A stretch of 39,227 bases of DNA, taken from NCBI GenBank assembly GCA_937888435.1, contig CALAQS010000233.1, forward strand, positions 1 through 39,227, read 5' to 3'. The position numbers and the translations under genes are program-made. The notes beneath the pieces were generated by a model. It searched no databases. It was given only the letters and a program-made list of their open reading frames with translations, and was not told where the DNA came from. Positions 361 through 25,094 of this stretch are shown here, in pieces (within the stretch, counting starts at the first letter, position 1; each line of letters starts with the position of its first letter). The DNA comes from an uncultured Acidobacteriota bacterium. Lineage in GTDB: Bacteria > Acidobacteriota > Thermoanaerobaculia > UBA5066.

Positions 361-3300
361 CTAGTTTGCCGCGACGACCGCCGGCGCTTTCACCTTGTTC
401 GGCGCCTTCGGCGCCGGCGACGCCGTGAGGAAGTCGTTGCCGAGCGACCAGATGTGGTCGCGCAGGGCCTTCGTGACGCGGTCGGGATCGCCGATGTAGG
501 CTTTCGCCTCGGCCTCGGAGCCCCAGATCGCGACGAGGTCCTTCTTGAGCCCCGCGAACGCGGGCGCGTCGAGCGCCGGCGCGAGAGGCGAGAAGCGCTT
601 CGCGGGCTTGCCCGGCCCCTCGTCGATCTTCGGGAAGTTCGTGGGCATGCGCGTGCCCGGCATCCACTCTTCGGGCCGCTTGATCCAGTCCGCGATCCAG
701 TCGTACCGCAAGCGCGTGTGCGCCGCCGCCAGAATGGGCGCGAGATCCGCCGGCGTCTTGCCGGCCCGGAGCGCGAGTTGGAATGCGTCCTGCGACGTCG
801 GATGGCACTGGGCGCACTTCAGCGCGTCGAACGTCTTCGCCCCCGCCGCGCGCGAGCGCGCGTCGAGCGCCTCGACGCGATTCTCGAAGGGATATCGCGC
901 CCTGTCGAGAGACGCGAAGTACGACGTGAGACCGTTGAGCTGGTCCGGGTTGAATTCGAAGGTCGGCATGCGGACCTTCAGCCACGGCCGGATCTGGCCC
1001 GAGCGCGGCGCGCCGAGGAACGAGAAGAGCCAGTCGCTCTGCACCTTGGCGCCCTCGCCGCGGATGATTGGCGGCGCCAGCGCGAGGTCGATCTTGTTCG
1101 CCGTCATGGCCTCGCGGATCGCTCCGCCCTTGTCCTCCAGGATGTGGCAGCCCTGGCAGTTGTAGTCCTTCACGATGCGGCGCCCGGCCTCCACCGCGCC
1201 ATGCGAGCCGGCGGCCTTCACGACGAGCGCATCGGACATGTCGTCCCTCTGCATCCCGAGGATCGCCGTCTGGACGGCTTCGATCTCCGCGGGCGAGAGC
1301 GAGAACTGCGGCATCTTGAGCTTCTCCTGGAAGCTCTTGACCTTCTCGCGGTCGAAGGAGCGCGGCTGCCCCGCCTTCTGCGCGAGCCAGTCCGCGCGCG
1401 TGTGCGGCAGGTGCACAAACCCGAAATCGAGGAGATGGACCGGCTTGTTTCCCCACTCGGACAGCTCGACGCCGATCGGCTTGGCCTTCTCGAAGCCGGG
1501 AATCACGTGACAGGAATAGCAGCCGTAGTGGGCGATGATCTTCTCGCCCACGAAAAGGTTCTTCTCCCTGAGCGTCATCCTCGCGACGTCGGCCTTCGCC
1601 TCCACGACGGACTTCGTCTGCGTGAGGTAGTCGTAGACGAGCGCGTCGCGCTCCTTCTCGTCCGCCTTCGGCGGGCGGCTGCGCGCGAACTCGGGCTGCG
1701 CCGGCCGGCTCATGAGGTACGCGACGAGGTCGGCGATCTCGTCGTTCGCGAGACGCAGGTTCGGCATCCGCGTCCCGGGGTTGTAGGCCTTCGGATTCTT
1801 CAGCCAGGCGGCGAGCCACTCGGGCGCCACTTTCTGCGAGAGGCCGATCAGGTTCGGGCCGTGCTGGCGCCAGCCGTCCATCACGTGGCGTTCGGCCCCC
1901 ACCTCGGAGATGTGGCAGCCCTGGCAACCCACGTTCTCGAAGAGCTGCTTGCCGCGCGCCGCGTCTCCCGCCGCGACCGCGGGCCACGACACCTTCTCCG
2001 ACTTCTCGAAGAGGTAGGCCGTGACGCCGGCGATCATCGTGTCCGTGAGACGGTGCCCCGCTTCTCCCTCGAAGTTCTCGAGGTAGAAAAAGCGCGGCAT
2101 CTTCGTGTTGTTCCGGAAGGCGCGCGGGTTCACGAGCCAGCGCTCCGCCCACTCCGGCGTCGTCTTGGACGCGATCCGGGAGAGATTCGGCCCGACGCGC
2201 GGCAGATCCTCGAAGCCTTTCATCTTGTGGCAGCTCCAGCAGCCGAGCTGCTCGACGAGCTTGCGGCCCTGGTCGAGCTTGGCCGCCTTCGGGTGCCCGG
2301 CGTCGCTCCGGTGGCAGCGGAAGCAGCCGGCCTCCACGGCCTTCATCGGGTACATGGGCAGATCGTCGAACTTGTCGACTTCCCAGTCGTATTCCCTCAT
2401 CCAGCGGCCCGTCTGCGTCTCGTCCATCGTCTCCCGCACCGCGTCGTCGTCCGTCGGCAGGCCCTTGTCGTCGTGCCCCTCCTCGAGCTGCGCCGCGAGG
2501 TGCTCGTATTGCCCGTAGTCGTTCGGCATGTGGCCGGCGCGCGTGAAGTCGGTCGCGCGGTCGCGCCCGCCGTGGCACGACGTGCAGCCGAAAGTCGCGT
2601 ACGGATGCGGGGAGTTCGAGTCGACGAAAAGGTCGAGGCGCGGATGCGTCCTCAGGACGGACTGCGGGTACTTTTCCTTGTCTTCGAAGCCCCGGGTCTC
2701 GGCCGCGATGTGGCACGTCATGCAGCGGTCGACGCGCTGGCTCCTGAGGAAGTTCACGTCGTTGTAGAGGCCCTCGAGCTGGACCTGCTGGATCTTGAGG
2801 GACGGGGCGAGCATGTCCGCGATGGGCGCGTTGCGCACGAAGTAAAAAGTGTCGTTCTGCCGGAGGGTCCCGAGCTTCGCCTGGAACCGGTCGTAGTCGG
2901 CGTCGAGCTTGACGAGCGCTTCCTCGGCGTCCTTCTTCGTCCGCTCGAGCGCGTCGAGCTCGGCCTTCGCCGCGTCCCGTCGCACGCGCGCGGCCTGCTC
3001 GACGATCGTGCTCGCCTCGTATGCCGCCTTCAGGCGCGCGTAGTCATTCCGGGCCGACTCGGTGCCCGCCGATTTCGGGCTCTCCTTCTGGCGCGTCTCG
3101 AAGTTGTAGCGCGCGGTGTCCATCTCGGCCTTCTTGAAACGGAAGTCCTGGTCGGCTTCGTACCAGGCTCCTTCGGCCTTCTTCGTCCGGTCCTCCGCTT
3201 CCGAAACCGCCGTGCGATTGCGGCGCATCTCGCGCGCGCCCTCGCGTTTCTGCTCGAGGTACTTCTCCTCGGCCTCGGGATCGATCTTCTCGGAGGCCGC

Positions 3301-3498
3301 TCGGAGCGCCGCGCGCGTCCTCTTGCGGTCGTTCTCGACGAACTTCTTCTGCCAGAATTTCCAATCGCGCCCGTAGTCCTGCCACGTCATCCATCCGAAT
3401 ACCGGCAGCACGAGAATCGACGTGATCGCGAAGACCTTCGTCAGCCGCTTGATGTCGTAGTGGTGATCGATCGGTTCGGGGGGAGGAGCCTTGGCCAT
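361..3498 (-). CDS. Membrane-anchored octaheme cytochrome c with N-terminal coiled coil
   Basis: A 1045-residue protein with eight CxxCH heme-binding motifs at about residues 259, 305, 392, 420, 525, 660, 781 and 895. Several are followed 40-70 residues later by a Met-Pro motif (KMPRF, TRMPN, KMPQF, RMPTF, TRMPT) of the kind that supplies the distal methionine in class I cytochrome c. Residues 22-38 form a single membrane anchor. Residues 50-215 are rich in Lys, Glu, Arg and Ala and look like a long coiled coil. The protein should sit in the inner membrane with its hemes in the periplasm and accept electrons from the bc-type complex encoded just upstream (1 base between its start and the stop of the subunit-IV-like gene). 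It looks like several mono-heme domains joined in series. The exact family is not recognised. Confidence 0.85.
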   Translation of the reverse strand: MAKAPPPEPIDHHYDIKRLTKVFAITSILVLPVFGWMTWQDYGRDWKFWQKKFVENDRKRTRAALRAASEKIDPEAEEKYLEQKREGAREMRRNRTAVSEAEDRTKKAEGAWYEADQDFRFKKAEMDTARYNFETRQKESPKSAGTESARNDYARLKAAYEASTIVEQAARVRRDAAKAELDALERTKKDAEEALVKLDADYDRFQAKLGTLRQNDTFYFVRNAPIADMLAPSLKIQQVQLEGLYNDVNFLRSQRVDRCMTCHIAAETRGFEDKEKYPQSVLRTHPRLDLFVDSNSPHPYATFGCTSCHGGRDRATDFTRAGHMPNDYGQYEHLAAQLEEGHDDKGLPTDDDAVRETMDETQTGRWMREYDWEVDKFDDLPMYPMKAVEAGCFRCHRSDAGHPKAAKLDQGRKLVEQLGCWSCHKMKGFEDLPRVGPNLSRIASKTTPEWAERWLVNPRAFRNNTKMPRFFYLENFEGEAGHRLTDTMIAGVTAYLFEKSEKVSWPAVAAGDAARGKQLFENVGCQGCHISEVGAERHVMDGWRQHGPNLIGLSQKVAPEWLAAWLKNPKAYNPGTRMPNLRLANDEIADLVAYLMSRPAQPEFARSRPPKADEKERDALVYDYLTQTKSVVEAKADVARMTLREKNLFVGEKIIAHYGCYSCHVIPGFEKAKPIGVELSEWGNKPVHLLDFGFVHLPHTRADWLAQKAGQPRSFDREKVKSFQEKLKMPQFSLSPAEIEAVQTAILGMQRDDMSDALVVKAAGSHGAVEAGRRIVKDYNCQGCHILEDKGGAIREAMTANKIDLALAPPIIRGEGAKVQSDWLFSFLGAPRSGQIRPWLKVRMPTFEFNPDQLNGLTSYFASLDRARYPFENRVEALDARSRAAGAKTFDALKCAQCHPTSQDAFQLALRAGKTPADLAPILAAAHTRLRYDWIADWIKRPEEWMPGTRMPTNFPKIDEGPGKPAKRFSPLAPALDAPAFAGLKKDLVAIWGSEAEAKAYIGDPDRVTKALRDHIWSLGNDFLTASPAPKAPNKVKAPAVVAAN

Positions 3499-3499
3499 G

Positions 3500-4576
3500 T
3501 CAGATATTGAAAGAAAATTCCTGGATGTTGACGATGTACTTGAGGTTGAAGATCCACCGCAGGTACATCTTGATCGGCACCGCGAACATGATGAGAAACA
3601 GGTTCACGCCCACGAAGAAGCGCACCATTCCCATCTTTTCGTAGAAACGTCTGAAGAGCGTCTTCCCGAGGAGGCCCGGCAGCGCGCCGAGATAAAAGAG
3701 GACCAAAAGGATTCCCGGCAGCTCGCGCTTCAACCAGAACGTCGGAAGCGCCGTCTTCAGCCATTTGACCCAGAAGATCTCCGAGACGCTCACGTTGTTC
3801 AGCGGAACGAGCTTGTTCGGATCCCAGTACTCGTACGGGCCGAAGAAGTTCCAGTTCGGCCCGCGCAGGAACGTCCCGAGGATGATGAGGACGACCCACA
3901 GGATGATGAACCCGAAGCAGAACATGACGATCTCCCACTTCCTCTCGCGGAAGGAGAAGTAGCCGTTCCCGCGCGGGTTCGTGTCGATGTACGGGATCGC
4001 CATGAGGCCCACGATGATCAGTGTCGGCAGGACGACGCCGGCCATCCATGGATCGAAGTAGACGAGCAGCTCCTGCAGCCCGAGGAAGTACCACGGCGCC
4101 TTCGCCGGGTTCGGGGCCGCGCCGGGGTTCGCGGGCTCCTCGAGCGGCGCCTTGAGCACGATCGACCAGACGATCAGGACGATCGAGCAGATGATCAGCG
4201 AGACGAGCTCGACGTACACGAGGTCGGGCCACGAGAAAACCTTCTTGTCGCTGTCGTCCTTTTCGAGAGGCGGCAGGCCCACCGAAAGGCGCGCGTCGTT
4301 CAGGTGCGCCTGATACATGGCGTACCAGAAGAAGAACCCCACGAGGAACAGCATTCCGAGGATCGGGACGTTGTCGGGCATGGTCGCGACGATGCGGAAG
4401 TTCGGATCCGTGAAGCTGAACGCGAACCCGCCCACGAGCGTCGCGAAGAGCACGAGCCCGCCCTTTTTCGTCCAGATCGGCTTGTAGAACATCGCGCCGA
4501 CGAGAGAGAGCATCGACAGTGTCACCGCGATGGCGGGCGATGCGAGCCAGTTGATGAATGACTTCAGGCCGTTCAT
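3500..4576 (-). CDS. Enlarged cytochrome b C-terminal half (subunit IV-like) of a bc-type complex
   Basis: A 358-residue, roughly eight-helix membrane protein. Residues 147-198 match the core of cytochrome b6f subunit IV / C-terminal cytochrome b: an EEPANP loop, then the Qo-site segment APWYFLGLQEL, then a long helix ending in AIPYID. The usual PEWY Qo motif reads APWY (160-163), without its acidic residue; such variants are known in menaquinol-using complexes. At 358 residues it is about twice the usual subunit IV length (~160), with three extra helices before and at least three after the core, plus a FRGPNWNFFGP segment. It follows the b6-like gene by 27 bases, so the two proteins together make a split cytochrome b. 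No heme-c motif is present. Confidence 0.85.
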   Translation of the reverse strand: MNGLKSFINWLASPAIAVTLSMLSLVGAMFYKPIWTKKGGLVLFATLVGGFAFSFTDPNFRIVATMPDNVPILGMLFLVGFFFWYAMYQAHLNDARLSVGLPPLEKDDSDKKVFSWPDLVYVELVSLIICSIVLIVWSIVLKAPLEEPANPGAAPNPAKAPWYFLGLQELLVYFDPWMAGVVLPTLIIVGLMAIPYIDTNPRGNGYFSFRERKWEIVMFCFGFIILWVVLIILGTFLRGPNWNFFGPYEYWDPNKLVPLNNVSVSEIFWVKWLKTALPTFWLKRELPGILLVLFYLGALPGLLGKTLFRRFYEKMGMVRFFVGVNLFLIMFAVPIKMYLRWIFNLKYIVNIQEFSFNI

Positions 4577-4603
4577 AGCGGCCTGCTGATCCCCTCGCTC
4601 ACA

Positions 4604-5398
4604 TCAAAGAGGCCCACTGATTCCTCCATCTTTTCTTACTCGCCAGAAGTGGACGGCCATGAGGAAGGCGGCGACGAGCGGGATGAACACGCAGTGGAGG
4701 ACGTAGAACCTGAGGAGCGCGTTCGCGCCCACGATGCGCCCGCCGAGGAGGCCGAAGCGCGCGTCGCTGCCCGCCGTCACGAGGTTCACGCCGTTCACGG
4801 CGAGCTGCGCGGCGAACGGCCCTTCGTTGCCCGCGAGCGGCGTCGCGCGCGCCATGTTCGAGCCGACCGTGATGGCCCAGATCGCGAGCTGGTCCCACGG
4901 GAGGAGGTAGCCCGTGAAGGAAAGGAGCAGCGTGAGGACGAGCAGGACGACGCCCACGTTCCAGTTGAACTCCCGCGGCGGCTTGTAGGAGCCGGTCATG
5001 AACACGCGGAACATGTGGATCCACACGGAGATCACCATCGCGTGCGCGCCCCAGCGGTGCATCTCTCGCATGATTCCGAAGGGCACCTGCTCGCGCAGGT
5101 CGAGCATGTCGCCGTAGGCGTACTCGATCGTCGGCCGGTAATAGAACATGAGGAGAAGGCCGGTGAACGTGAGCGTGAGGAACAGGAAGAACGTCATCCC
5201 GCCCGCGCACCACGTGTAGCGCATCTTGACGCCCGACTTGCGCGTCTTCACCGGGTGCAGGTGCAGCACGACGTTGCCGAGCATCGCGAGCACGCGCTTG
5301 CGGTTCGTGTTCGGAATGCCGACGCGAAAAATGGACTTCCAGATCTGCGTCTCGACGACCTGCTGCTGGATCTTTTTCCAGTGGCGCTCGAGGCTCAT
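4604..5398 (-). CDS. Cytochrome b6-type N-terminal cytochrome b subunit
   Basis: A 264-residue four-helix di-heme protein. Heme-ligand histidines are H114 and H128 (13 residues between) and H235 and H250 (14 between); the 14-residue gap in the second pair is the b6f type rather than the bc1 type. FYYRPT (86-90), [10 protein letters not shown] (134-143) and [10 protein letters not shown] (161-170) are hallmark b6 segments. Cys64, in YTWCAGG, lines up with the cysteine that in b6 covalently holds the extra heme ci (also called cn). The product should form the quinone-binding core with the downstream subunit-IV-like protein and the upstream Rieske protein. Start: ATG at 5398, 58 bases after the Rieske stop. 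Confidence 0.92.
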
Positions 5399-5456
5399 GC
5401 GCCGGCGGCTCCTCTTTCCCTTTCAGAAGACATCTCTTGGTCCCTCAATCCTTCTC

Positions 5457-5999
5457 CTACGTCGTCTTGATGAAGGCCGCCGGATCGGTCCACTGGCCCT
5501 TCTCGTAAAGGAACTTCCGCGCCTTGTCGATGAAGATCTGCCCGTCGTCGGGCGAGATGGAGATGGCCGCGCGCTCGAGCGGGCGCGGCGTGGGCCCCTC
5601 GAAGTTGATGCCCGAGCGGTAGTACCCCGAGCCGTGACACGGGCACTTGAACTTGTTCTGCGCCGGGAGCCAGTTCGGAATGCAGCCGAGGTGAGTGCAC
5701 ACGGTGATGAGCGCGTAGATCATCTCCGTGTTGCGCACGACCCAGATCTGGTACTTCTCCTTCCAGCGCTCGTCGACCTCGCCGACCTGGTAGTCGGCCG
5801 GATAGCCCGCCTTAAAGGACGACGGTGGCTCGAACAGGACGTTCGGAAACAGGAAACGCGCCATTGTGGTGACGAACGCGCCGACGCCGGCGGCGAACGC
5901 CAGCCAGCCGACGGCGAGCCAGTTGACGAAACTGCGGCGCGTGGGGGCAGCGGCCGCGTTTTCCGCGACGGCGACTCCCGCCGAACCCGTTTCCGTCAT
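5457..5999 (-). CDS. Rieske [2Fe-2S] subunit of a bc-type complex
   Basis: A 180-residue protein with a Tat-like N terminus (twin arginine at 21-22 followed by SFVNW), one membrane helix at about 25-48, and a periplasmic Rieske fold. The cluster motifs are CTHLGC (101-106) and CPCHGSGY (119-126): ligands C101, H103, C119 and H122, with a likely disulfide between C106 and C121. It shuttles electrons from quinol at the Qo site to a c-type heme, here most likely in the octaheme protein. GGGGGCGG lies just upstream of the ATG as a plausible ribosome site. It is the first of the core complex genes and may also have its own promoter in the 52-base gap after the HEAT-repeat gene. Confidence 0.93.
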   Translation of the reverse strand: MTETGSAGVAVAENAAAAPTRRSFVNWLAVGWLAFAAGVGAFVTTMARFLFPNVLFEPPSSFKAGYPADYQVGEVDERWKEKYQIWVVRNTEMIYALITVCTHLGCIPNWLPAQNKFKCPCHGSGYYRSGINFEGPTPRPLERAAISISPDDGQIFIDKARKFLYEKGQWTDPAAFIKTT

Positions 6000-6020
6000 C
6001 CGCCCCCTCGAGAAAACACC

Positions 6021-6035
6021 TGAGACAAAGTCTCA
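6021..6035. promoter_or_regulatory. Perfect 6-3-6 dyad in the HEAT-Rieske gap, possible operator
   Basis: TGAGAC-AAA-GTCTCA is a perfect inverted repeat in the gap between the HEAT-repeat gene and the Rieske gene. On the minus strand it is preceded by a run of six T and, 14 bases further upstream, by TTGACG (6050-6055), which resembles a -35 box and includes the HEAT-gene stop. A weak -10-like GACTTT falls within the dyad at 17-base spacing. The T run precedes rather than follows the stem on the coding strand, so it is not an intrinsic terminator. An internal promoter with an operator is possible but unproven. Confidence 0.3.
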
Positions 6036-6051
6036 AAAAATGCGGGCTCCG

Positions 6052-6963
6052 TCAAGGCGCGTCTTTCGGCCGTGGTGCCGCGGACGCCTTCTCTCCGAGG
6101 AGGATCCTTTTCGCCTCGCGCCTCACGCGCAGCGACGGGTCCGTGTCGGACATCTTCCCGCCGAGCGCCTTCGCCGCCGGGTCGTGCAGGAGAACGAGAC
6201 CGCGAAGGCCGTTGAGGAGCGCGTCTTCCTGCTGGTCCGCGGAAAGCCCGGGCGTCGACCGCAGACGTTCGCGGTCGCACATGCCGACGAGGACGTCGCG
6301 CCCGGCGGGGTCGTCGAGCGTCGCGAGGGCGAGCGCCGCGTTCCAGCGGACGTCCGTGACGGAATCCGCGAGGAGCTTCTTCAGCGCCGGGACCGCCTCG
6401 CCGTCCTCCATGCGCCCCAGGGCATACGCCGCGGTCTTGCGGACTCCGGCGTCCTCGGACTCGAGCAGCGGCCGCACGCGTGGCGCCGAGGAAGGATCTC
6501 CGACGAGAGCGAGCGCCCACAGCGCATACAGGCGCGTCTCGGGGTCCTTGTCGTCGAGCGCTTTCTCGAGGAGCGGAACAGCCCGCGGGTCTCCGAGGCG
6601 GCCGAGGACGAGCGTCAGGTACCGCCTCACGCGCGGGTCATCGTTCTCGGCGCCCTCGAACGCGCGCAGAGCCGCGGCCGAGAATGCCGCGCGCTCTTTC
6701 GGATCCGTGAGGGCAGGCAGCTTCTTCGTGAGCTCGAAGGCCGACTGCCAGCGCTGGTTCCGGCTCCCCGTCCGCACGTCGTTCAGCAGCTCGGCGGCGT
6801 TCTTGCGGTCGACGGCGATGGCGCCGAAGAGCCAGAAAACGAATACCGCCACGCCGACGACGAACAGCGGGATGACGAAGAACTGGACGAGGAGTCGGCC
6901 AGCCGGGGTCGGGGAGGAAGAGGAAGATTCTTCGAAAGGGGGCTCGGGCGTTACATCACCCAT
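6052..6963 (-). CDS. Membrane-anchored HEAT-repeat protein
   Basis: A 303-residue protein with an acidic/Ser-rich N terminus, one strong membrane helix at about 24-50, then about five HEAT/PBS-lyase-like repeats (roughly 100-270), each with a D-P-x-x-R or D-x-x-x-R turn followed by an Ala/Leu helix pair (for example DPRVRRYLTLVLGRLGDPRAV). Such repeats are protein-binding scaffolds. It lies between the ferredoxin gene (3 bases upstream) and the Rieske gene in one operon, so an assembly or docking role for the electron-transfer complex is inferred from position only. No catalytic motif is seen. Confidence 0.75.
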   Translation of the reverse strand: MGDVTPEPPFEESSSSSPTPAGRLLVQFFVIPLFVVGVAVFVFWLFGAIAVDRKNAAELLNDVRTGSRNQRWQSAFELTKKLPALTDPKERAAFSAAALRAFEGAENDDPRVRRYLTLVLGRLGDPRAVPLLEKALDDKDPETRLYALWALALVGDPSSAPRVRPLLESEDAGVRKTAAYALGRMEDGEAVPALKKLLADSVTDVRWNAALALATLDDPAGRDVLVGMCDRERLRSTPGLSADQQEDALLNGLRGLVLLHDPAAKALGGKMSDTDPSLRVRREAKRILLGEKASAAPRPKDAP

Positions 6964-6966
6964 TGA

Positions 6967-7416
6967 TTAGAGGACCGGCAGGTACTGCTTGGCCTGCGTG
7001 ACCGGGTTCGGGACGTAAATGGCGTCCTTGTCGCAGACCGTCTCGCAGAGGCGGCAGGACACGCACGGGGCCGCGTCCACCTCGGCCACCTTGTAGTGGA
7101 GGTTCGGAGCGAGCGGGTCGGCCACGAGGTGAATACAGTCGAACGGGCAGATGTCGATGCAGAACTCGCACGCCGTGCAGAGCTCGCGGTCCACGATCGC
7201 CTTCGGGATGTCCTTAGGCTTGACCTTCATCACGAGGTCGCCGTGCTGGTCCTGAATGCACGAGACGGGGCAGTAAACCGCGCACACGGAGCAGTCGATA
7301 CACCGGTCCTGGTGGATCACGAACTTCTCGTTCTTGCCGCCCGTGATCGTGTGCGTCGGGCACTTGATCTCGCAGACACCGCACCCGATACACGTGTCGT
7401 GAATGAAATGAGGCAT
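6967..7416 (-). CDS. Ferredoxin with four [4Fe-4S] cluster motifs
   Basis: A 149-residue protein containing four CxxCxxCxxxC motifs starting at C9, C39, C80 and C118. The first three end in the usual CP; the last ends in CD. Two extra cysteines (C53, C94) lie just after motifs two and three. With no membrane helix or signal it should act in the cytoplasm or on the inner face of the membrane as a multi-cluster electron wire. The ATG at 7416 was preferred because GGAAGGGCGGGCC precedes it; an in-frame ATG 15 bases upstream lacks a ribosome site. It is the first gene of the bc-type operon, unusual for a classical bc1 locus and suggestive of electron exchange between a cytoplasmic donor and the quinone pool. 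Confidence 0.88.
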   Translation of the reverse strand: MPHFIHDTCIGCGVCEIKCPTHTITGGKNEKFVIHQDRCIDCSVCAVYCPVSCIQDQHGDLVMKVKPKDIPKAIVDRELCTACEFCIDICPFDCIHLVADPLAPNLHYKVAEVDAAPCVSCRLCETVCDKDAIYVPNPVTQAKQYLPVL

Positions 7417-7529
7417 GGCCCGCCCTTCCATGAAAAGCTAGCATCGGCGGCGGGGAATGTCCATGCCGGAGGACGGCGGGAACCTTTTCCCTTCCGCCCT
7501 CGTTCCCCTCTCTGGAGCCGGAGGCCATC

Positions 7530-8148: not shown

Positions 8149-8742
8149 TCACTCGTCCTCGAACGGGTCTTTGCCCATCTCCTCGATGACGCGGTCGAGC
8201 CGGTACTGACTCGGCCCGAACACGAAGCGCATCTCCCCGTTCTCGCACACGACGTCCTTGACCTGCACGGAGAGCTCCGGCGGCATGACGCCGTTGAGGT
8301 TCACGACGACGATCCGCTCCTCGGGATAGAAGAACGCGCGCCCCTCGGGCTGCCTTTCGACGATCTTCGAGATGACCCAGTTCGGAATCGGCACCACCCC
8401 GAAGATGTGGAGGTCGGCGATCGTGAACCCGAGAAAGCCGTCCTTGAAGCGCAGGGACTCGAGATGGCCGCGGAAGGCCACCGGGATTCCCTTCTTGATA
8501 TAGCGGACCGACAGGCCGAGCCGCCCGTCTTCGGGCTCGATGAGGATCTCCCGCACCTCGGGCACTTTCCGGGTGGCCTTGCGGGCGATCGTGTTCAGGG
8601 TCGTGGCGTCGATCGCGACTACGAGGCCCTCCCACCGCACCGTGAGGGCCGGCAGGTCGGGCGAGGGGATGGAATAAGCGGGCTCGGCCACAGTCTTCCC
8701 GATCCTACGCTCGCGAGCCGGGTTCACAAAAGGCGCTCTCAT
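8149..8742 (-). CDS. Conserved-looking protein of unknown function, possibly lipid-associated
   Basis: A 197-residue product with no clear signal peptide or membrane helix. It is rich in alternating hydrophobic strands: a LTVRWEGLVVAID strand, a helix with two basic residues, then LGLSVRYIKKGIPVAFRG and FTIADLHIFGVVPIP, with a short acidic tail. The layout recalls DUF2993/AsmA-like or LptC-like beta-taco proteins that handle hydrophobic ligands, but no diagnostic motif is visible. The ATG at 8742 overlaps the UbiA gene stop as ATGA, so it is translationally coupled to the prenyltransferase. A lipid or isoprenoid connection follows from that position only. It is the last gene of the long minus-strand run. 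Confidence 0.6.
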   Translation of the reverse strand: MRAPFVNPARERRIGKTVAEPAYSIPSPDLPALTVRWEGLVVAIDATTLNTIARKATRKVPEVREILIEPEDGRLGLSVRYIKKGIPVAFRGHLESLRFKDGFLGFTIADLHIFGVVPIPNWVISKIVERQPEGRAFFYPEERIVVVNLNGVMPPELSVQVKDVVCENGEMRFVFGPSQYRLDRVIEEMGKDPFEDE

Positions 8743-9722
8743 AAGAGGTAAGCCGCCGCGAAGCCGATTTGCGCCAGCATGAGCATGAGGTACATGTGAG
8801 TCCACGACGGATGGTTCTCGGTCGTGCCGAGCTCGTCCGGATTCTTCCTCAAGAGGTGCACCGTGTAGGCGCCCCAGGCGGCGAGGAGGAGGCCGAGCGC
8901 CGTGAGGAGGGCCGGGTTGCCGCTCAGAAGCCGGTGCGCTCTCGCCGCGGGATCGGGTGTGCGGGCGAGCACCGGCAGGAGCAGCCACGGCAGGACGAAG
9001 AAGGGCGAGATGATCGCGACCGCCTTACGGTTCCCGTACTTCACGGGCAGCGTCATGCAGCCGCCCGCGCGGTCTCCCTCGGCGTCGGAGAAATCCTTCG
9101 TCGAGGTGGCGCCGAGGAGAAAGAGCCCGAAGATCGACCCGATCGCCCAGGGCTCCGCGGAGAACGCGGACGCGACGAGCGTCCAGCCCGCGACCTTGAG
9201 AAGGCACCCGCGGGGAATCGCGATCGTCACGTTCGCCCATATTCCGAGGCGCTTCGTCCTCCCGAACGAGGGGGTCGAATAGATCAGCGTCGCCACGAGG
9301 CCGGCGAGGAACAGAAAGAAGCACTGGTGGTCGGCGAGCGGGGCGGCGGCCCGCGCAAGGAGTCCGGGAGGCCTCGGCACGACGATCCACCACGTCGGAA
9401 CGAGGGCGAGAAAGTACAGAGTCCAGGTCAGGCGCCACGCCGCCGCCAGGGACACCTCGCCGGTGACCAGAGGCCGGTCGGGTTTGTTGACGCGATCCAC
9501 CTCGAGGTCGGTGATCTGGTTGAGCACGTTCGAGGCCGCGTTGAGGAGCGACGCGCAGAGCGATCCCAGCGCGACGATCCCGAGAAGCTCCCCCGTCACG
9601 CGCCGCGCGGGATCGGGGTTGTGCACGCTGCCGAACGCACACACGGCTCCTGACAGGATCCCGAGGAGAGGAGGCAGAAGCGTGAACGGGCGGGCGAGGC
9701 GCATCGCCTGGCGTACGTTCAC
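8739..9722 (-). CDS. UbiA-family prenyltransferase
   Basis: About 327 residues with seven to nine membrane helices. The first Asp-rich motif reads NQITDLEVD (N68, D72, D76), followed by RVNKPDRPL; the second is KDFSDAEGD followed by a TLPVKYG segment, the two Mg-diphosphate sites of the family. Members move a prenyl chain from prenyl diphosphate onto an aromatic or polar acceptor (quinone, chlorophyllide, glycerol phosphate). The KDFSDAEGD segment is closest to the chlorophyll-synthase / homogentisate-phytyltransferase branch, but the acceptor cannot be read from sequence. The GTG start at 9722 overlaps the upstream stop as GTGA; an ATG at 9704 is the alternative. It is coupled to a polyprenol-kinase/DUF92 fusion that could supply the prenyl diphosphate. 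Confidence 0.9.
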   Translation of the reverse strand: MNVRQAMRLARPFTLLPPLLGILSGAVCAFGSVHNPDPARRVTGELLGIVALGSLCASLLNAASNVLNQITDLEVDRVNKPDRPLVTGEVSLAAAWRLTWTLYFLALVPTWWIVVPRPPGLLARAAAPLADHQCFFLFLAGLVATLIYSTPSFGRTKRLGIWANVTIAIPRGCLLKVAGWTLVASAFSAEPWAIGSIFGLFLLGATSTKDFSDAEGDRAGGCMTLPVKYGNRKAVAIISPFFVLPWLLLPVLARTPDPAARAHRLLSGNPALLTALGLLLAAWGAYTVHLLRKNPDELGTTENHPSWTHMYLMLMLAQIGFAAAYLL

Positions 9723-11059
9723 GAGAGGCTCCCGAGGGCCCGCAGAAGCGCGGGCGCGGCGACGGCTCCCGCCAGCGTGTTCACGAAGTTCAGGACGTGG
9801 CCGTTCGAGACGCGCCAGGGCGCTCCCGCCCTGCCGAGAAGGCTCTCGAGGACCGTGCCGAGGCAGGCCGCGAGCACGACGGCCACGGCGCCGAGCGCCG
9901 TGAGAAGGGTCGTCGCTAACCCAGCCGCCGCGAGGACCGCGGCCGCCGCGAGACCTGCCAGCGTGCCCGCCACGGAAACGGCACCGTCCGTGCCCGGCGA
10001 AACCCGCCGGAGATCCGGCAGGAGGGCCGTCGGCGACGCGATGGCCTGGCCGACCTCGGTGCCGACCGTGTCCATGAGGGCCGTCGCGAGTGCGGCCGCG
10101 GCCGCGAGCCGGAAGACGTCGCCGCTCGGTACAAGGCCCGCCACGAGCGCGCAGAACGCCGCGACGGACACGTTCGCGAGGACGTTCGCCGCGCCCCGCC
10201 GCCCGCTCTCCTCCTCCGCCTTCCCGATCGCCTCCTTGCGCGCCCTGTGAAAGCGCGTGGCGAGCGTCCCGACGCCGAAGAAGACCCAGAGGGAAAGATA
10301 GAGAGGCGCGCCGCCGAACGCGAGGACGACAGTTCCGAGGAGCGCCCCAAGGAGCGCGCCGGACGGGCGGACGAGCCGGAGGGCGAGGGCGGTCGTGGAG
10401 ACCGCGACGTTGATCCCGAGGGCGACGAGCCCACCGCGGAGCGCTCCCGGCTCGAGAACGTCCGACCAGCCTGCCCGTGTGAAGAGCAAACACGCGAGAA
10501 CCGCGGCTCCCACGAGCGGCGGCAGGACGTTGTCGTCCAGCTCGGACGGAAGGCTCTCGATGGCTGCGCCCGCGAACGCTGCCGCGAAGAGGCAGATCAG
10601 CTCGGAGGAAGAGGGAACCCGGGAGGAGACGAATCCATAGAGACAGGACGCTCCGAAAAAGCCAAAGACGACATAGCCGAGGAAGCCGGAAAAGGTCTTC
10701 CCCGAGTTCCATGGAAGCCGCCGTCCGCCAATTGCCATTCCCGCGAGCGAAGCAAAACCATCTCCAAACGCCAAGTATCCCCATCCCGCGGCGGCGACAG
10801 GAAGATTTCTGCGAAAAAGGAGAAGAAGAGCAAACACGACGAGCGGATAGAGCGTGATCCCGACCGAAAAGCCCCTGTCCCCCTCTTCCTTTCTAAGAAA
10901 ATACGGGGTCACCCGGGGCAAGAGGAATGCATTGAAGAGAACGGTGAATCCCGCAGCCGCCAATGCCGCTCCCCACGAGAGCGAAGGCAGGAGCAGCGCG
11001 AAGAGAGCCATCCCGATGTGCAGCGCCTTTCGCGCCGCCTCGGACCTCGTCAACGTCAT
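9719..11059 (-). CDS. Fused polyprenol (phytol/dolichol-type) kinase and DUF92 prenyl-phosphate kinase-like protein
   Basis: A 446-residue membrane protein made of two families. Residues 8-195 match the CTP-dependent phytol/dolichol kinase family (VTE5, SEC59, DGK1): RKALH near the start, then AFGDGFASLAG (97-107) and GKTFSGFLGY (120-129). Residues 205-446 match DUF92 (VTE6/TMEM19): SGALLGALLGT (233-243), ATRFHRARKEAIGKAEEESGRR (267-288), and later MDTVGTEVGQ plus VSPGTDGAVS. In plants and cyanobacteria VTE5 turns phytol into phytyl phosphate and VTE6 turns that into phytyl diphosphate, so one protein could carry both steps. The start overlaps the rmlD stop as ATGA and the stop overlaps the UbiA start as GTGA. 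Confidence 0.9.
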   Translation of the reverse strand: MTLTRSEAARKALHIGMALFALLLPSLSWGAALAAAGFTVLFNAFLLPRVTPYFLRKEEGDRGFSVGITLYPLVVFALLLLFRRNLPVAAAGWGYLAFGDGFASLAGMAIGGRRLPWNSGKTFSGFLGYVVFGFFGASCLYGFVSSRVPSSSELICLFAAAFAGAAIESLPSELDDNVLPPLVGAAVLACLLFTRAGWSDVLEPGALRGGLVALGINVAVSTTALALRLVRPSGALLGALLGTVVLAFGGAPLYLSLWVFFGVGTLATRFHRARKEAIGKAEEESGRRGAANVLANVSVAAFCALVAGLVPSGDVFRLAAAAALATALMDTVGTEVGQAIASPTALLPDLRRVSPGTDGAVSVAGTLAGLAAAAVLAAAGLATTLLTALGAVAVVLAACLGTVLESLLGRAGAPWRVSNGHVLNFVNTLAGAVAAPALLRALGSLS

Positions 11060-11913
11060 GGGGCGGGGCGCGCGGGCGCGGCGGCACGGCGCTCGGCGAG
11101 GTAATCCCCGAGAGCCTCTCGCCAGGAGCGCGGCGCGCCGCCCGTGATGCGCTCGTAGAGCGACGTGTCGAGGACCGACCAGCGGGGGCGCCGCGCGGGC
11201 CGGGGAAACTCGGACGTGGAAACCGCCTTCACGCGGACGTCCGCGTGACCCTCTCGCGCAATCGCCTCCGAGGCGAGCTCGTGCCACGTGGCTTCTCCCG
11301 CGTTCGCAAAGTGCACGACACCCGTGACCCGCTTTTCGAGGAGCTGGCGGATTGCCCGCGCGACATCGGCCGCGTACGCGGGCCGCGCGACCTGGTCGTT
11401 CACGACCGAGAGGTCGCGCGCGCCGCTCTCGACCTTCTTCAGGATCGTGTCCACGAAGTTCACGCCGCCCATGCCGAAGACCCACGAGGTCCGGAGGACG
11501 AGCACCTCGTCGCCTTCCTCGAACGCGCGCCGCTCCCCCATGAGCTTGGCGCGGCCGTACGCGTTGATGGGGTCGACGGGATCGTCTTCGCGATAGGGAC
11601 GGATTCCCTTTCCGGAGAAGACGTAATCGGTCGAGACGTGCACGAGCGTCGCGTCCAGCTTGCGGCAGAGAGCCGCGAGCGCTCCCACCGCGACGACGTT
11701 GACCACGACGTGGTGCGGGTCGGTTTCCGCGGCGTCGACGCGCGTGTCAGCCGCGGCGTTCAGGACGAGGCGCGTGTCCGGGGCGAGAGCCCCGCGAAGG
11801 GCGACGCCATCGGTGATGTCGAGGGCCGCCCGGGTGAAGCGCTCGGCCTCCGGGAACTCGCGTCCGAGCGCCCGCCCGAGCATTCCACCGGCTCCGAGGA
11901 TGACCGTCTGCAC
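11056..11913 (-). CDS. rmlD: dTDP-4-dehydrorhamnose reductase
   Basis: A 285-residue Rossmann-fold enzyme (also called rfbD) that reduces dTDP-4-dehydro-L-rhamnose to dTDP-L-rhamnose for O-antigen or exopolysaccharide. Visible signatures are the NADPH loop GAGGMLG (7-13), STDYVFSG (94-101) with the catalytic Thr, and YGRAK with the catalytic Tyr119 and Lys123. Length matches the family. The start is GTG at 11913. No rmlA, B or C is present in the window, so the other dTDP-rhamnose genes must lie elsewhere. It sits in an envelope-related run downstream of lptD, 33 bases after the secreted-protein gene. Confidence 0.92.
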   Translation of the reverse strand: MQTVILGAGGMLGRALGREFPEAERFTRAALDITDGVALRGALAPDTRLVLNAAADTRVDAAETDPHHVVVNVVAVGALAALCRKLDATLVHVSTDYVFSGKGIRPYREDDPVDPINAYGRAKLMGERRAFEEGDEVLVLRTSWVFGMGGVNFVDTILKKVESGARDLSVVNDQVARPAYAADVARAIRQLLEKRVTGVVHFANAGEATWHELASEAIAREGHADVRVKAVSTSEFPRPARRPRWSVLDTSLYERITGGAPRSWREALGDYLAERRAAAPARPAP

Positions 11914-11946: not shown

Positions 11947-13311
11947 CTACTTGCGCAGCGGCACCGCGAAGGGGTCGTTCGTGCCGGCCGCCGTGTTCCC
12001 GTCGACCACGTAGGCGGTCCCGGCAACGGTGCAGCCTGTCGTCACGTTTTTCACGAGGACGGACGCATCCCGCACGTCGGCCGCGAACCCGAACGTGTCC
12101 TTGAGCCGGTTTTTCTGGATCATCGTGTGCGGCGGGACCGTGAACGTTCGGGCGTCACCCAGCAGGTTCCCGCCACCGTCCAACACCTCGGACTGGACGG
12201 CACAGGGGGACATCGACGTGTTGACGAACGCGAGATTCGTCCGCGTTGACGCGTCCTCGCGCATGGCGATGAACCGCCCCGTCTCGCCGTAGGCGAGCGC
12301 GAGGGGCAGCGAGGTGCCAGAGGAGACGTCGACCGCCTCGGTGAACTGGCCGAAGGAGCCGACCCCCGCGGGAGCCGGTGTCGCGGTCCGGGCCCCGATG
12401 AGCAGCCGGTTCGTCGACTGGACGAGGATCGCCCCGTAGTCCGAGGAGATCGAAAAGAGCCCGGAAAGGATGTCCACGAACTCGCGCGAGCCCAAGGCCC
12501 CTATGCTCTGCGGGCTCGAAACGGGCTGAAGCGGCGGCACGTTCTGGTCGCCGTCGTTTCCGTGCCCGAGGTACTGGATGACGAACTGGCCGTCCGCCGC
12601 TTCCGCGTTCGTGACGTTGACGTCGCTCGTGTAGCCGCCCGTGCGCGCGACCGACGTTACGACGTAAGCGTAGGCGTATCCGACCGCCACGCGGGAGACG
12701 TTCAGCTGGAGGACGCCGCCCTTCGAGGGCTCGAACAGGCCCGTGAAGCCATCGGGCTGTCCGATCCCGCCGACGGCGATCGTGTACGTCGTGCCCGCCT
12801 CCAGGAGGAGCGTCACCGACGACTGGAGCGATCCGGGCGCGTCGTCGGGAAAAAAGCCGTTCTGGCGGCAGATTCCCGAGACGGGATTGAGCGATCCGCA
12901 GGAGCCCGTGTTCACGCCGAGGATCGTGTCGTAGTCGGCCGCGGGCGCCGTGCCGATCGTGTCGATCCGGTAGGTGTCCGAGACCGTGGGCGTGAAGGAG
13001 AACCAGACGATGTGCGACGGAGGCGCCTGCCCGCCCGACGGAAGCTGTCCCTTGGTGTAACAGGGAAAGACCGGAGGATTCCCGTCACCGGGAATGTCGG
13101 TGGTGTCGATGCCCGCCGAGGACCAGGGGAGCGCTCTCGGGTCGATGACGAGCGCCGAGGCACAGGTCGCGTTCGTCACCGCCGCGTCGCCCCGAAGCGC
13201 AGAACACGGGAGAAGGAGAAGGAGAAGGAGAAGGCCGAGAAACGTCCGGATTCGTCCCACGGTGGGAGTGTCGCGACGGGGCAGAATCTCTCTCGCGGCG
13301 AAAAGGGTCAC
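11947..13311 (-). CDS. Secreted protein with PPC-like domain, function unknown
   Basis: About 454 residues. After a long basic N-region comes a hydrophobic core of eight consecutive leucines, then ALRGDAA as a likely signal-peptidase site. Residues ~45-195 look like a bacterial pre-peptidase C-terminal (PPC) domain: TCASA, PWSSAGIDT, PCYTKG, IVWFSFTP, YDTILGVNTGSCGS, and AGTTYTIAVGG. Four cysteines in that domain could pair. The remaining ~250 residues are beta-rich with a recurring V-N-T-x motif (NVTNAE, FVNTS, VKNVTT), typical of surface proteins but of no family recognised here. The GTG at 13311 was chosen because it overlaps the lptD stop as GTGA and has GGGAG six bases upstream; GTG at 13260 would give a more standard signal peptide. 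Confidence 0.7.
   Translation of the reverse strand: MTLFAAREILPRRDTPTVGRIRTFLGLLLLLLLLPCSALRGDAAVTNATCASALVIDPRALPWSSAGIDTTDIPGDGNPPVFPCYTKGQLPSGGQAPPSHIVWFSFTPTVSDTYRIDTIGTAPAADYDTILGVNTGSCGSLNPVSGICRQNGFFPDDAPGSLQSSVTLLLEAGTTYTIAVGGIGQPDGFTGLFEPSKGGVLQLNVSRVAVGYAYAYVVTSVARTGGYTSDVNVTNAEAADGQFVIQYLGHGNDGDQNVPPLQPVSSPQSIGALGSREFVDILSGLFSISSDYGAILVQSTNRLLIGARTATPAPAGVGSFGQFTEAVDVSSGTSLPLALAYGETGRFIAMREDASTRTNLAFVNTSMSPCAVQSEVLDGGGNLLGDARTFTVPPHTMIQKNRLKDTFGFAADVRDASVLVKNVTTGCTVAGTAYVVDGNTAAGTNDPFAVPLRK
13210..13233. repeat. Hexanucleotide tandem repeat (GAGAAG x4) in a signal-peptide core
   Basis: Four perfect copies of GAGAAG in tandem, reading as CTTCTC on the coding (minus) strand and encoding the eight-leucine hydrophobic core of the secreted protein's signal peptide. 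The unit is two codons long, so a slip would lengthen or shorten the core without changing frame. Confidence 0.95.
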
Positions 13312-15542
13312 GGAAGGCTCCCGGTGAAGTCGAGAAAGCTGCCCACGTTTTTCAGGGTCAGCGCCACCCGGAAATCCCTCGAAGGCACGATTCCGGTGCG
13401 CAAATCCCGGTATTCCGCGAGTATTTTGAAGCATGCTGCCTGAAGGGTCAACAGACTCCGGGATTCGAGCATGCGCCCTTTCGTCAGATCGTAGTTCGCT
13501 TCCACGTCGAATCTGAGCTTCTTGGGGAGGATCGGCACCCCGCCCGAGACGCGCAGCTGGGCCGAGGCGCCGGGGTCCAGCGAGGCCGGAATGATCACGG
13601 GGTGGCTGTCGAAGAGCGAGAGCGCGAGGGTACGCTCGGCTCCCGACAGGACGGCCGTCATACTCGCGGCCGTGATCTGGTTCGCGTGAGGGTCCCAGGT
13701 CGTCCTCGCGTCCAGGTTCAGGGCCGATGTCGCGTTGACGCGGAGAATGAAGTCCAGAGGCGAGTTCTTCTGGACGCTGGGGTCGAGCGGAAAGGCCGTA
13801 CTCTCGCCCGGGAGCCTCACGAAATAGCTGCGTGCGATCTCGAACGAGGCGATCTCGCGCGAGCCGCCCTGGTCTCCCTTGGCGAGGAAATGCTGGAGCA
13901 GCGAGTAGCGGACCACGTTCGTGGGAATGAGGGAGTCGACCTCGTCGAAGAGCGGCGTCGGCGCGAAGTCGTCCCGCCCCGCGAGGTAGTCCCAGATGAT
14001 GCGCGGCTCGATCACGTGCTTGAACTTCGTGAACGGCCCCAGCTTTCCCTCGAAGAGGCGCGAGAAGGCGGGGCCCGTCAGGGAGACTTCCGTCGACAGC
14101 GCCTCGCGGTCGTAGGGCTTGTCCACCAGGGTAATGCCGTCCGCCGCGAGGGACTTGCCGTAACTCGTGATCCTGACGCCCGCCGTGCCCTCGAGCGACA
14201 GCCAGGGGAACAGCGAGAGCGGCACGTTCACCTTCGGGAAGAAATCGAGCCGGTCGTATGTGCCGGCCGGCAGGCCGTCGCCCCGGTCGGTGCTCAGAAA
14301 GCCGGCCTGCCCCGACGCCTCGACGAACACCGCCTGCCCGAAGAATGGCGTGGGGCGCATGTTCGCCTCGAGCACGGGCAGGCGTTCAGTCACGATGTTG
14401 CCGGTGCCGTACCCGAGCGCCTCGTCGCGCGTTATCCGGAGATTCAGGGCGAACGGGTCGGGGCTCCAGGTGACGAAAGCTTCGCTCCCGATGGTCCGCG
14501 CCGAGGAGAGGCTGAAATTCGCGTTGAAGCTCTGGAAGAACGTCGGGTCCGAAAAGTCGAGCCAGGTGACCACGGCGCGCAGCTTCGGCCCGAGGTCGTT
14601 CGAAACGAGCGTCCCGATCGTCTGCCACTGCCAGTGCTGCACCGTGGGGTCGTAAATCGTGTAGTACGTGCCCTCGAAGCGCGTGCCTTCGGATGGGCGC
14701 GCCCGGAGCTCGGTGCCGAGGCCGTAGTACCCCTTCGTGTAGAAGTCGCCCGAGAACGTGGCGTCGGCGGAGCGCGAGATCGCCCAGTAATACGACGTGC
14801 CGAAATACCCGCCCCGGTTCGAGTTGTAGCCGAGACCCGGGATGAGGAAGCCCGAGGCCCGGTCCCTCAGCGCAGGCCAGATGAGATAGGGCGTCCAGAG
14901 GAGCGGAACGTCGCCCATCAGGAACGTCACGCCCTTGAGGCGCGCGAAATCCTCGAGCGTCACCCGGGCGCTCCTGACCCGGAACCTCCATGCCGGATCC
15001 TGGCCTTCGCAGATCTCACAGGAGGTGACGACGCCGTCCTGGAGCGTGAAGCTGCGCGGCCCGACCTTCGCGAGCGTCGCGCCCTTCAGATGGAGGCCGC
15101 CCTCGAGGTCGATGCGGCCGTCCGTGAGGACGCCCGTCTTCTGGACGAGGTCCAGCTCGAGCCTCAAGCCCTGCATCCGCGAAGCCCCCTGCTCGAACGT
15201 CACGTCGCCCTCGGCGACGACGGTCTTCTCCTTCAGGCTGCCATGGATGCTTCGCGCCCGGAGCTTCATGTCCTGGTACTCGATCGTGACGAATTTGCCG
15301 GGCGGCGCATCCGCGGTGAAGAGGTCCTCTTCGATGAACGTCTGCTTGCCCTGCGGCCCTCCGGGGTCGCCCGCGTCGATCGTGATACGGATCGACCCGC
15401 CTTTCTCGGGCAGCTTGAATTTCGGCTCGAACCCGCCCCGCTCCCGGAAGTGCGCCGCGAAGGGATCGGTGTCGAAGGAGGACTGGGAGAGGGCGGAGCC
15501 CGCGACCAGGAGCCCGACCAGACCGAGGCCGATTCGACACAT
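13308..15542 (-). CDS. lptD: LPS-assembly outer-membrane protein LptD
   Basis: A 744-residue protein that forms the outer-membrane part of the lipopolysaccharide exporter. An N-terminal signal peptide (1-20) is followed by an OstA/LptA-like beta-jellyroll (about 45-165: repeated GDVTFEQG, RLELDL, GRIDLEGG strands), then the conserved C175-x-x-C178 segment EICEGQDPAW, then a long beta-barrel domain with LLWTPYLIWPALRDR and many alternating aromatic strands. A late cysteine in QAACFKILAEYRDL matches the C-terminal cysteine region that, in E. coli, pairs with the N-terminal one. ATG at 15542 was preferred to a GTG three bases upstream. It sits between CoA-transferase genes (29 bases upstream) and a secreted protein, an uncommon setting. 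Confidence 0.9.
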   Translation of the reverse strand: MCRIGLGLVGLLVAGSALSQSSFDTDPFAAHFRERGGFEPKFKLPEKGGSIRITIDAGDPGGPQGKQTFIEEDLFTADAPPGKFVTIEYQDMKLRARSIHGSLKEKTVVAEGDVTFEQGASRMQGLRLELDLVQKTGVLTDGRIDLEGGLHLKGATLAKVGPRSFTLQDGVVTSCEICEGQDPAWRFRVRSARVTLEDFARLKGVTFLMGDVPLLWTPYLIWPALRDRASGFLIPGLGYNSNRGGYFGTSYYWAISRSADATFSGDFYTKGYYGLGTELRARPSEGTRFEGTYYTIYDPTVQHWQWQTIGTLVSNDLGPKLRAVVTWLDFSDPTFFQSFNANFSLSSARTIGSEAFVTWSPDPFALNLRITRDEALGYGTGNIVTERLPVLEANMRPTPFFGQAVFVEASGQAGFLSTDRGDGLPAGTYDRLDFFPKVNVPLSLFPWLSLEGTAGVRITSYGKSLAADGITLVDKPYDREALSTEVSLTGPAFSRLFEGKLGPFTKFKHVIEPRIIWDYLAGRDDFAPTPLFDEVDSLIPTNVVRYSLLQHFLAKGDQGGSREIASFEIARSYFVRLPGESTAFPLDPSVQKNSPLDFILRVNATSALNLDARTTWDPHANQITAASMTAVLSGAERTLALSLFDSHPVIIPASLDPGASAQLRVSGGVPILPKKLRFDVEANYDLTKGRMLESRSLLTLQAACFKILAEYRDLRTGIVPSRDFRVALTLKNVGSFLDFTGSLP

Positions 15543-15571
15543 CACGCGACGCGCCGCAAGACGGGGGCCAG

Positions 15572-16234
15572 TCAGACCTTCATCTCGGGCACGTCGCCGC
15601 TGATCTCGAGCGGCGGCTGGGTGGCGGCGCGGATCTCGTCCACCGAGACACCCGGCGCGCGCTCGACGAGGACGAGGCCTCCGCCCTTCTTCACGTCGAG
15701 GACGGCGAGGTCGGTGATGATGCGGTGGACGCAGCCCTTGCCCGTGAGAGGAAGCGTGCAGCGGTTCAGGATCTTCTTCTCGCCGTTTTTCGCGACGTGC
15801 TCCATCGTGACGACGATGCGCCGCGCCGCCGCGACGAGGTCCATCGCGCCGCCCATCCCCTTCACGAGCTTACCGGGGATCATCCAGTTCGCGATCGACC
15901 CCTCGGCGTCGACCTGCATCGCTCCCAAAATGCAGAGGTCGATGTGGCCGCCGCGGATCATCACGAAGGAGTCGGCCGACGAGAAGAATGCGGCGCCGGG
16001 AACGACCGTCACGGTCTCCTTCCCGGCGTTGATGAGGTCGGGGTCGACCTCGCTCTCGGTCGGGTACGGACCCATGCCGAGGATGCCGTTCTCGGACTGG
16101 AGGATGACCTCCATGCCCTTCGGGATGAAGTTCGAGACGAGCGTCGGCATGCCGATGCCGAGGTTCACGTACATCCCGTCGTTGAGCTCTCTGGCCGCGC
16201 GCCGGATGATGCCGTCCCGGTCGAGCTTCGCCAT
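15572..16234 (-). CDS. scoB: 3-oxoacid CoA-transferase subunit B
   Basis: A 220-residue subunit. [12 protein letters not shown] (47-58) contains the catalytic glutamate E48 that forms the glutamyl-CoA intermediate; GIGMPTL and [20 protein letters not shown] are further family blocks, and GMGGAMDLV is the typical C-terminal-domain motif. Together with subunit A (2 bases upstream) it exchanges CoA between succinyl-CoA or acetyl-CoA and a 3-oxoacid such as acetoacetate. With the thiolase upstream this gives a route between acetoacetate and two acetyl-CoA, as in ketone-body or butyrate/leucine breakdown. The exact acid substrate cannot be read from the sequence. Confidence 0.92.
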
Positions 16235-16236
16235 CC

Positions 16237-25090: not shown

Positions 25091-25094
<4 letters not shown>
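23598..25094 (-). CDS. accC: Biotin carboxylase subunit of an acyl-CoA carboxylase
   Basis: A 498-residue ATP-grasp enzyme. [19 protein letters not shown] opens it; GGGGKGM (161-167) is the ATP loop; the active-site segment [16 protein letters not shown] is near residue 290; [10 protein letters not shown] is present. It carboxylates biotin using ATP and bicarbonate. The C-terminal ~30 residues (after AALESMDG) are Arg/Pro/Gly-rich and unlike the family, ending where a fused carrier domain begins in propionyl/methylcrotonyl alpha subunits. The GTG start overlaps the carboxyltransferase stop as GTGA. Confidence 0.93.

What the first reader, a model, noticed from the sequence alone, without database searches (positions are those of the whole stretch)
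8149..11059. Fused VTE5-like and VTE6-like (DUF92) protein coupled to a UbiA prenyltransferase: a possible polyprenol salvage cassette
In plants and cyanobacteria phytol is phosphorylated twice, by VTE5 and then by the DUF92 protein VTE6, to feed UbiA-family enzymes. Here the two kinases are one 446-residue protein translationally coupled (GTGA) to a UbiA enzyme, which is in turn coupled (ATGA) to an unknown protein. In a non-phototroph this points to recycling of a polyprenol into a quinone, membrane lipid or another prenylated compound, perhaps one not yet described.
Basis: partly seen in the sequence, partly recalled or inferred. Interest (0 to 1): 0.7.

Follow-up and report, generated by a model that had tools for sequence, protein, structure and literature searches.

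The report
Fused prenol kinases with orphan prenyltransferase
A non-photosynthetic soil-type bacterium carries, in one operon, a single protein that looks like both plant phytol-recycling kinases joined together, followed by a membrane enzyme that attaches isoprenoid tails to an unknown molecule; the pair is conserved across its phylum, so it probably marks an unexplored route for making a prenylated compound.

Summary
On the minus strand, 9719-11059 encodes a 446-aa fusion: an N-terminal domain of the CTP-dependent lipid-kinase kind (VTE5/Sec59/Dgk1) and a C-terminal DUF92 (VTE6) domain. The 'unknown' third gene is lineage-specific and not core. The host is a Thermoanaerobaculia-like Acidobacteriota MAG. 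In 247 genomes of the phylum the same UbiA occurs in 73, and all 73 carry the fusion; 52 of the 53 same-contig pairs lie under 3.5 kb apart, three of them convergent. The UbiA is not MenA/MqnP, CtaB, chlorophyll synthase or an archaeal-lipid enzyme. It forms its own clade (100/100). All 33 members examined carry NQxxDxxxD plus KDxxDxxGD, the pair described as typical of plant homogentisate prenyltransferases (VTE2-like). The genome has separate MqnP and CtaB and the futalosine pathway; GGGP synthase and tocopherol cyclase were not found. Most likely: a two-kinase prenol salvage enzyme feeding prenyl diphosphate to an uncharacterised UbiA. Prenol and acceptor are unknown, and no activity has been shown. 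New variant of a known kind; whether the fusion itself is unreported could not be checked (key papers not held).

The parts
9719..11059 (-). Fusion protein P0001, 446 aa: N-terminal VTE5/Sec59/Dgk1-type CTP-dependent kinase-like domain and C-terminal DUF92 (VTE6-like) domain
10436..11059 (-). N-terminal domain, about residues 1-208: RK..H, GI.LYP, GDG.A...G, (P)WN..K[ST]..G, E....DDN motifs
   Evidence: invariant columns in 30 fusions; CTP_transf_1 hit in 9/29 members
9833..10411 (-). DUF92 (PF01940) domain, residues 217-409: GRRGA..VLAN, MDT.GTE.GQ, PGTDGAVS..GTLAG motifs
   Evidence: PF01940 E 2e-40, 7.1e-41 on the genome
8739..9722 (-). UbiA-family prenyltransferase P0002, 327 aa, GTG start overlapping the fusion stop (GTGA); NQITDLEVD at residue 68 and KDFSDAEGD at residue 209
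8149..8742 (-). Small protein P0003, 197 aa as called (180 aa if the conserved start at codon 18, GTG near 8691, is used); no family known; lineage-specific
11056..11913 (-). rmlD, dTDP-4-dehydrorhamnose reductase (TIGR01214 above its cut-off), overlapping the fusion start (ATGA); upstream member of the coupled chain
   Evidence: also upstream in relatives
13308..15545 (-). LptD-like LPS-assembly protein, conserved upstream neighbour in many families of the phylum

Best explanation
The fusion is a bifunctional membrane enzyme. Its N-terminal domain phosphorylates a prenol, using CTP, to prenyl phosphate; its DUF92 domain phosphorylates that to prenyl diphosphate. The overlapping UbiA gene makes an intramembrane prenyltransferase that joins this prenyl group to an acceptor other than those of menaquinone, heme O, chlorophyll or archaeal lipids. 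The two catalytic motifs are those of homogentisate-type (VTE2-like) enzymes, so a small aromatic or phenolic acceptor is the favoured guess. Shown: the domains, motifs, operon, genome-wide co-occurrence and exclusion of the usual UbiA families. Inferred: both kinase activities, their order and the hand-over to UbiA. Unknown: the prenol (phytol, geranylgeraniol, farnesol or longer), its source (environment or turnover of the cell's own lipids) and the acceptor.
For: DUF92 E 2e-40. N-domain placed in the CTP-transferase/dolichol-kinase superfamily by CTP_transf_1 hits, by its profile finding CdsA and Sec59/Dgk1-like proteins, and weakly by CarS (5guf, prob 0.84, E 0.62) in a fold search. Catalytic-type residues of both halves invariant in 30 fusions. 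Same UbiA in 73/247 genomes, all 73 with the fusion; 52 of 53 same-contig pairs under 3.5 kb apart, including three convergent arrangements. UbiA clade 100/100 apart from reference families; NQxxDxxxD and KDxxDxxGD in 33/33 members and together in none of 29 other UbiAs; these motifs are described as typical of homogentisate prenyltransferases in PMC11380790. VTE5, FOLK and VTE6 are CTP-preferring kinases of this pathway, with genes known only from plants and cyanobacteria (PMC9782597). Genome has its own MqnP, CtaB and MqnA/MqnD-type genes. In one species (L072) the UbiA follows an IspA-type prenyl diphosphate synthase. A relative inferred to be a Chloracidobacterium-like phototroph has the fusion and three ChlG-type UbiAs.
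Against: No activity tested. The window's N-domain gives no direct family hit. The neighbourhood (LptD, dTDP-rhamnose genes, heat-shock genes) names no acceptor. The UbiA lies far from the NCBI homogentisate phytyltransferase model (59 bits, cut-off 226) and scores higher, though still far below cut-off, with ChlG models. No canonical geranylgeranyl reductase above cut-off in this genome. Co-occurrence counts ignore shared ancestry.
Confidence: 0.52

Rival explanations
1. The kinases act on long polyprenols (undecaprenol-type) and serve the lipid carriers of LPS or O-antigen assembly; UbiA acts on a polyprenyl phosphate or sugar lipid in the same pathway.
For: The fusion lies beside LptD and dTDP-sugar or epimerase genes in many families, and rmlD overlaps it in the window. 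The N-domain is also related to dolichol-kinase-like proteins.
Against: The polyprenyl-phosphate type of UbiA is a different gene (L004, decaprenyl-phosphate phosphoribosyltransferase-like) and falls elsewhere in the tree. In many genomes the UbiA sits away from LPS genes. A second phosphorylation by DUF92 has no evident use in carrier-lipid recycling.
Confidence: 0.15
2. UbiA takes its prenyl diphosphate from de novo synthesis (IspA-type); the fusion only repairs or recycles prenol lost from the same compound during turnover, as in chlorophyll re-use, so the pair is a biosynthesis-plus-repair unit rather than scavenging from outside.
For: IspA-type gene directly before UbiA in L072. Every genome with this UbiA has the fusion, but 39 genomes have fusion or DUF92 matches without it, so the kinases are the more widespread part. 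The fusion is kept in a Chloracidobacterium-like phototroph with three ChlG-type enzymes.
Against: The translational coupling in the window places the kinases, not IspA, with UbiA. This differs from the main reading only in the source of the prenol.
Confidence: 0.18
3. The N-terminal domain is a cytidylyltransferase (CdsA/CarS-like) and UbiA a DGGGP-synthase-like enzyme: an archaeal-type ether-lipid module.
For: Fold search hit to CarS 5guf. The second UbiA motif KDFxDxEGD is also in DGGGP synthase. CTP_transf_1 superfamily.
Against: No GGGP synthase (PF01884) in the genome. The CdsA signature pattern is absent from all 30 fusions. The first UbiA motif is NQ, not ND. DUF92 would be unexplained.
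Confidence: 0.07

Closest known systems
VTE5 phytol kinase (plants, Synechocystis) and FOLK farnesol kinase
   Same: N-terminal domain has the CTP-kinase superfamily layout (RK..H, GD..A...G, K[ST]..G, E....DDN) and sits next to a second prenyl kinase and a UbiA
   Different: Fused to DUF92; no direct family-model hit for the window protein; host not known to be phototrophic; substrate unknown
VTE6 phytyl-phosphate kinase (DUF92, COG1836)
   Same: PF01940 well above cut-off
   Different: C-terminal half of a fusion; below the TIGR00297 cut-off (131 vs 206 bits)
Homogentisate phytyltransferase VTE2 / HST / HGGT
   Same: NQxxDxxxD and KDxxDxxGD motifs in 33/33 members
   Different: HPT model score far below cut-off (59 vs 226 bits); no tocopherol cyclase in the genome; homogentisate supply not tested
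Chlorophyll/bacteriochlorophyll synthase ChlG/BchG
   Same: Nearest references by family HMM (83 bits) and near the top by NCBIfam; same UbiA architecture
   Different: ChlG motifs NDxxDRxxD and NDFKSxxGD not met; separate clade; about 25-29% identity
Archaeal DGGGP synthase (6m31)
   Same: Best solved-structure hit by sequence; second motif shared
   Different: First motif NQ instead of ND; no GGGP synthase in the genome

Membership tests
DUF92 / VTE6-type | PF01940 match over gathering score | tested here: met
   139 bits vs 27.5
DUF92 / VTE6-type | prenyl-phosphate kinase activity | not testable with these tools
   needs an enzyme assay
VTE5 / Sec59 / Dgk1 CTP-dependent lipid kinases | membership of the CTP-transferase superfamily | tested here: met
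   CTP_transf_1 in 9/29 members (best 5.6e-5); profile finds CdsA and Sec59/Dgk1-like proteins; window protein alone gives no hit
VTE5 / Sec59 / Dgk1 CTP-dependent lipid kinases | direct similarity to a characterised VTE5 or dolichol kinase | not tested
   no characterised member available in the collections used; no solved structure found
CdsA cytidylyltransferase | CdsA signature pattern | tested here: not met
   0 of 30 fusions
UbiA prenyltransferase superfamily | PF01040 match and two Asp-rich motifs | tested here: met
   106 bits vs 34.2; motifs in 33/33
Homogentisate prenyltransferase (VTE2-like) | NQxxDxxxD and KDxxDxxGD | tested here: met
   33/33 members, 0/29 other UbiAs carry both; motif definition from PMC11380790
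Homogentisate prenyltransferase (VTE2-like) | HPT model PRK12887 over cut-off | tested here: not met
   59 bits vs 226
Chlorophyll synthase ChlG/BchG | NDxxDRxxDxxxxxxR motif and model cut-off | tested here: not met
   NQxxDLxxD instead; 90 vs 313 bits; separate clade
MenA / MqnP / UbiA quinone prenyltransferases | clade and model membership | tested here: not met
   separate clade; MqnP-like gene is L001
Heme O synthase CtaB | TIGR01473 cut-off | tested here: not met
   28 vs 210 bits; CtaB is L002
DGGGP synthase | partner GGGP synthase in the genome | tested here: not met
   PF01884: no match in the genome

The most novel reading that the evidence does not exclude
A non-phototrophic bacterial phylum makes a tocochromanol- or plastoquinol-like prenylated aromatic (a membrane antioxidant or quinone not yet described) through an operon that parallels the plant VTE5-VTE6-VTE2 branch, using salvaged or recycled prenol.
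Probability: 0.13. Interest if true: 0.85.

Novelty: new variant of a known kind. Interest (0 to 1): 0.55.

Why it matters
Genes for the two-step prenol salvage pathway are known only from plants and cyanobacteria (PMC9782597). A natural fusion of both steps, tied one-to-one to an uncharacterised UbiA across a bacterial phylum, gives a compact, expressible system to test whether DUF92 is a general prenyl-phosphate kinase. It also points to a prenylated compound of Acidobacteriota that standard annotation misses.

Tried and rejected
MenA/MqnP, CtaB, ChlG/BchG, DGGGP synthase and DPPR-synthase identities for the UbiA. Archaeal-lipid module: no GGGP synthase. Tocopherol pathway by its cyclase: absent here; the 7 phylum genomes with a hit are none of the 73. 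Geranylgeranyl reductase as a fixed partner: the model is too broad, own genome only weak. LmeA/TULIP idea for the third protein: LmeA model does not match, no PDB hit, structure prediction unusable at pLDDT 37. PDB sequence search for the fusion: nothing useful. Plasmid tblastn of the fusion: nothing. Fold search of the fusion: no significant hit, only CarS plausible at E 0.62. Literature: no open paper found on the fusion; vom Dorp 2015 and Seaver 2014 are not held, so earlier mention of VTE5-VTE6 fusions cannot be excluded.

Full report
What is there. The three ORFs of the finding are real and on the minus strand: fusion 9719-11059, UbiA 8739-9722, small protein 8149-8742. The fusion stop and UbiA start overlap as GTGA, the UbiA stop and next ATG as ATGA. 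The chain also begins one gene earlier: rmlD (11056-11913) overlaps the fusion start as ATGA. The window belongs to a 3.70 Mb MAG whose named relatives are Acidobacteriota, including Thermoanaerobaculia.

The fusion. Residues 217-409 match DUF92 at E 2e-40, and it is the only DUF92 in the genome. The first 208 residues have no direct hit in the window protein, but 9 of 29 homologous N-domains hit CTP_transf_1, best 5.6e-5. A profile of the domain finds, across the phylum, CdsA proteins, PlsY-linked proteins and stand-alone proteins with the layout RK..H / GD..A...G / K[ST].EG / E.LP..DDN. From general knowledge this is the layout of Sec59/Dgk1/VTE5 lipid kinases. The CdsA signature is absent from all 30 fusions. 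The corresponding residues and the DUF92 motifs are invariant in 30 diverse fusions. AlphaFold gave a moderate model (pLDDT 74); its only sensible fold match is the cytidylyltransferase CarS, not significant at E 0.62. The VTE5-like call is therefore well supported at superfamily level and inferred at function level.

Distribution. Matches occur in 112 of 247 genomes of the phylum; some are stand-alone DUF92 (one family) or stand-alone N-domains (for example G004 and G242), so both split and fused forms exist. The same UbiA occurs in 73 genomes and every one of the 73 has the fusion. Where both are on one contig, 52 of 53 pairs are within 3.5 kb; 49 are on the same strand and three convergent. 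A naive hypergeometric value is 3e-34 and ignores shared ancestry. The convergent cases, and the 20 genomes with the genes on different contigs, argue for a functional tie beyond operon inheritance.

The UbiA. The genome has four UbiA genes: an MqnP/UbiA-type one, CtaB, a HAD-linked DPPR-synthase-like one and this one. MqnA/MqnD-type genes are present, so menaquinone and heme O are accounted for. In a tree of 62 proteins the window UbiA and 32 relatives form a clade with 100/100 support on a long stem, apart from ChlG/BchG, DGGGP synthase, MqnP, CtaB, MenA and DPPR types. By family HMM the nearest references are BchG/ChlG (83 bits) and DGGGP synthase (62 bits). Yet the ChlG motif NDxxDRxxD is replaced by NQxxDLxxD, and NDFKSxxGD by KDF[SA]DxxGD. 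Both NQxxDxxxD and KDxxDxxGD occur in 33/33 members and together in none of 29 other UbiAs. A recent paper describes this pair as typical of homogentisate prenyltransferases (PMC11380790). The homogentisate phytyltransferase model itself scores only 59 bits against a cut-off of 226, so this is a resemblance, not membership.

The third gene. P0003 is found in 10 of 247 genomes, all in the same class, and is unlinked to the fusion in several. Its homologues start about 17 codons later. It has no family, no LmeA match, no solved relative, and its structure prediction failed. It is not a core part.

Neighbourhood. Upstream are usually LptD and dTDP-sugar or other short-chain-dehydrogenase-type epimerase genes; downstream of UbiA in several families are grpE, hsp20, clpB and htpX. 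In one genome the UbiA stands alone behind an IspA-type prenyl diphosphate synthase (L072). None of this names the acceptor. A two-contig genome with three ChlG-type UbiAs, inferred to be Chloracidobacterium-like, has the fusion but not this UbiA. That fits a general role of the fusion in feeding UbiA enzymes.

Mechanism. Best reading: prenol to prenyl phosphate (N-domain) to prenyl diphosphate (DUF92), then transfer by UbiA. The known plant and cyanobacterial kinases of this pathway prefer CTP, and their genes are known only from those groups (PMC9782597). Kinase activity, substrate and acceptor are inferred or unknown. Acceptors excluded by evidence here: those of menaquinone, heme O, chlorophyll and archaeal ether lipids. 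Tocopherol is unlikely because no cyclase was found. An aromatic acceptor is the favoured but weak guess.

Novelty. The parts are known kinds; the fused pair tied to an uncharacterised UbiA clade in non-phototrophs is a new variant. Prior mention of such fusions in subscription papers could not be checked.

Noticed in passing
361-7431: Electron-transfer cluster next door on the same strand: cytochrome c domain, cytochrome b close to ExtP (263 of 290 bits), Rieske protein, HEAT-repeat protein and a multi-cluster ferredoxin.
   Followed up: no
L143:678-1874, L144:2-1195, L149:1-1167: Other Acidobacteriota have PlsY glycerol-phosphate acyltransferase fused to a Sec59/Dgk1-like domain, a second unusual lipid-kinase fusion.
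   Followed up: partly
L057, L061, L063, L077, L087, L088, L089: The UbiA is repeatedly next to heat-shock genes (grpE, hsp20, clpB, htpX), which might hint at a stress-protective lipid.
   Followed up: partly
L092-L095: Weak tocopherol-cyclase (PF14249) hits in 7 genomes of the phylum, none of them among the 73 with this UbiA.
   Followed up: no
23071-27166: Biotin-carrier and carboxyltransferase ORFs (acyl-CoA carboxylase type); a CoA-transferase pair lies at 15572-16950.
   Followed up: no
L006 / L035 downstream of the fusion: The UbiA of the nearest named relative is broken by an assembly gap (N), so it appears in two pieces.
   Followed up: no
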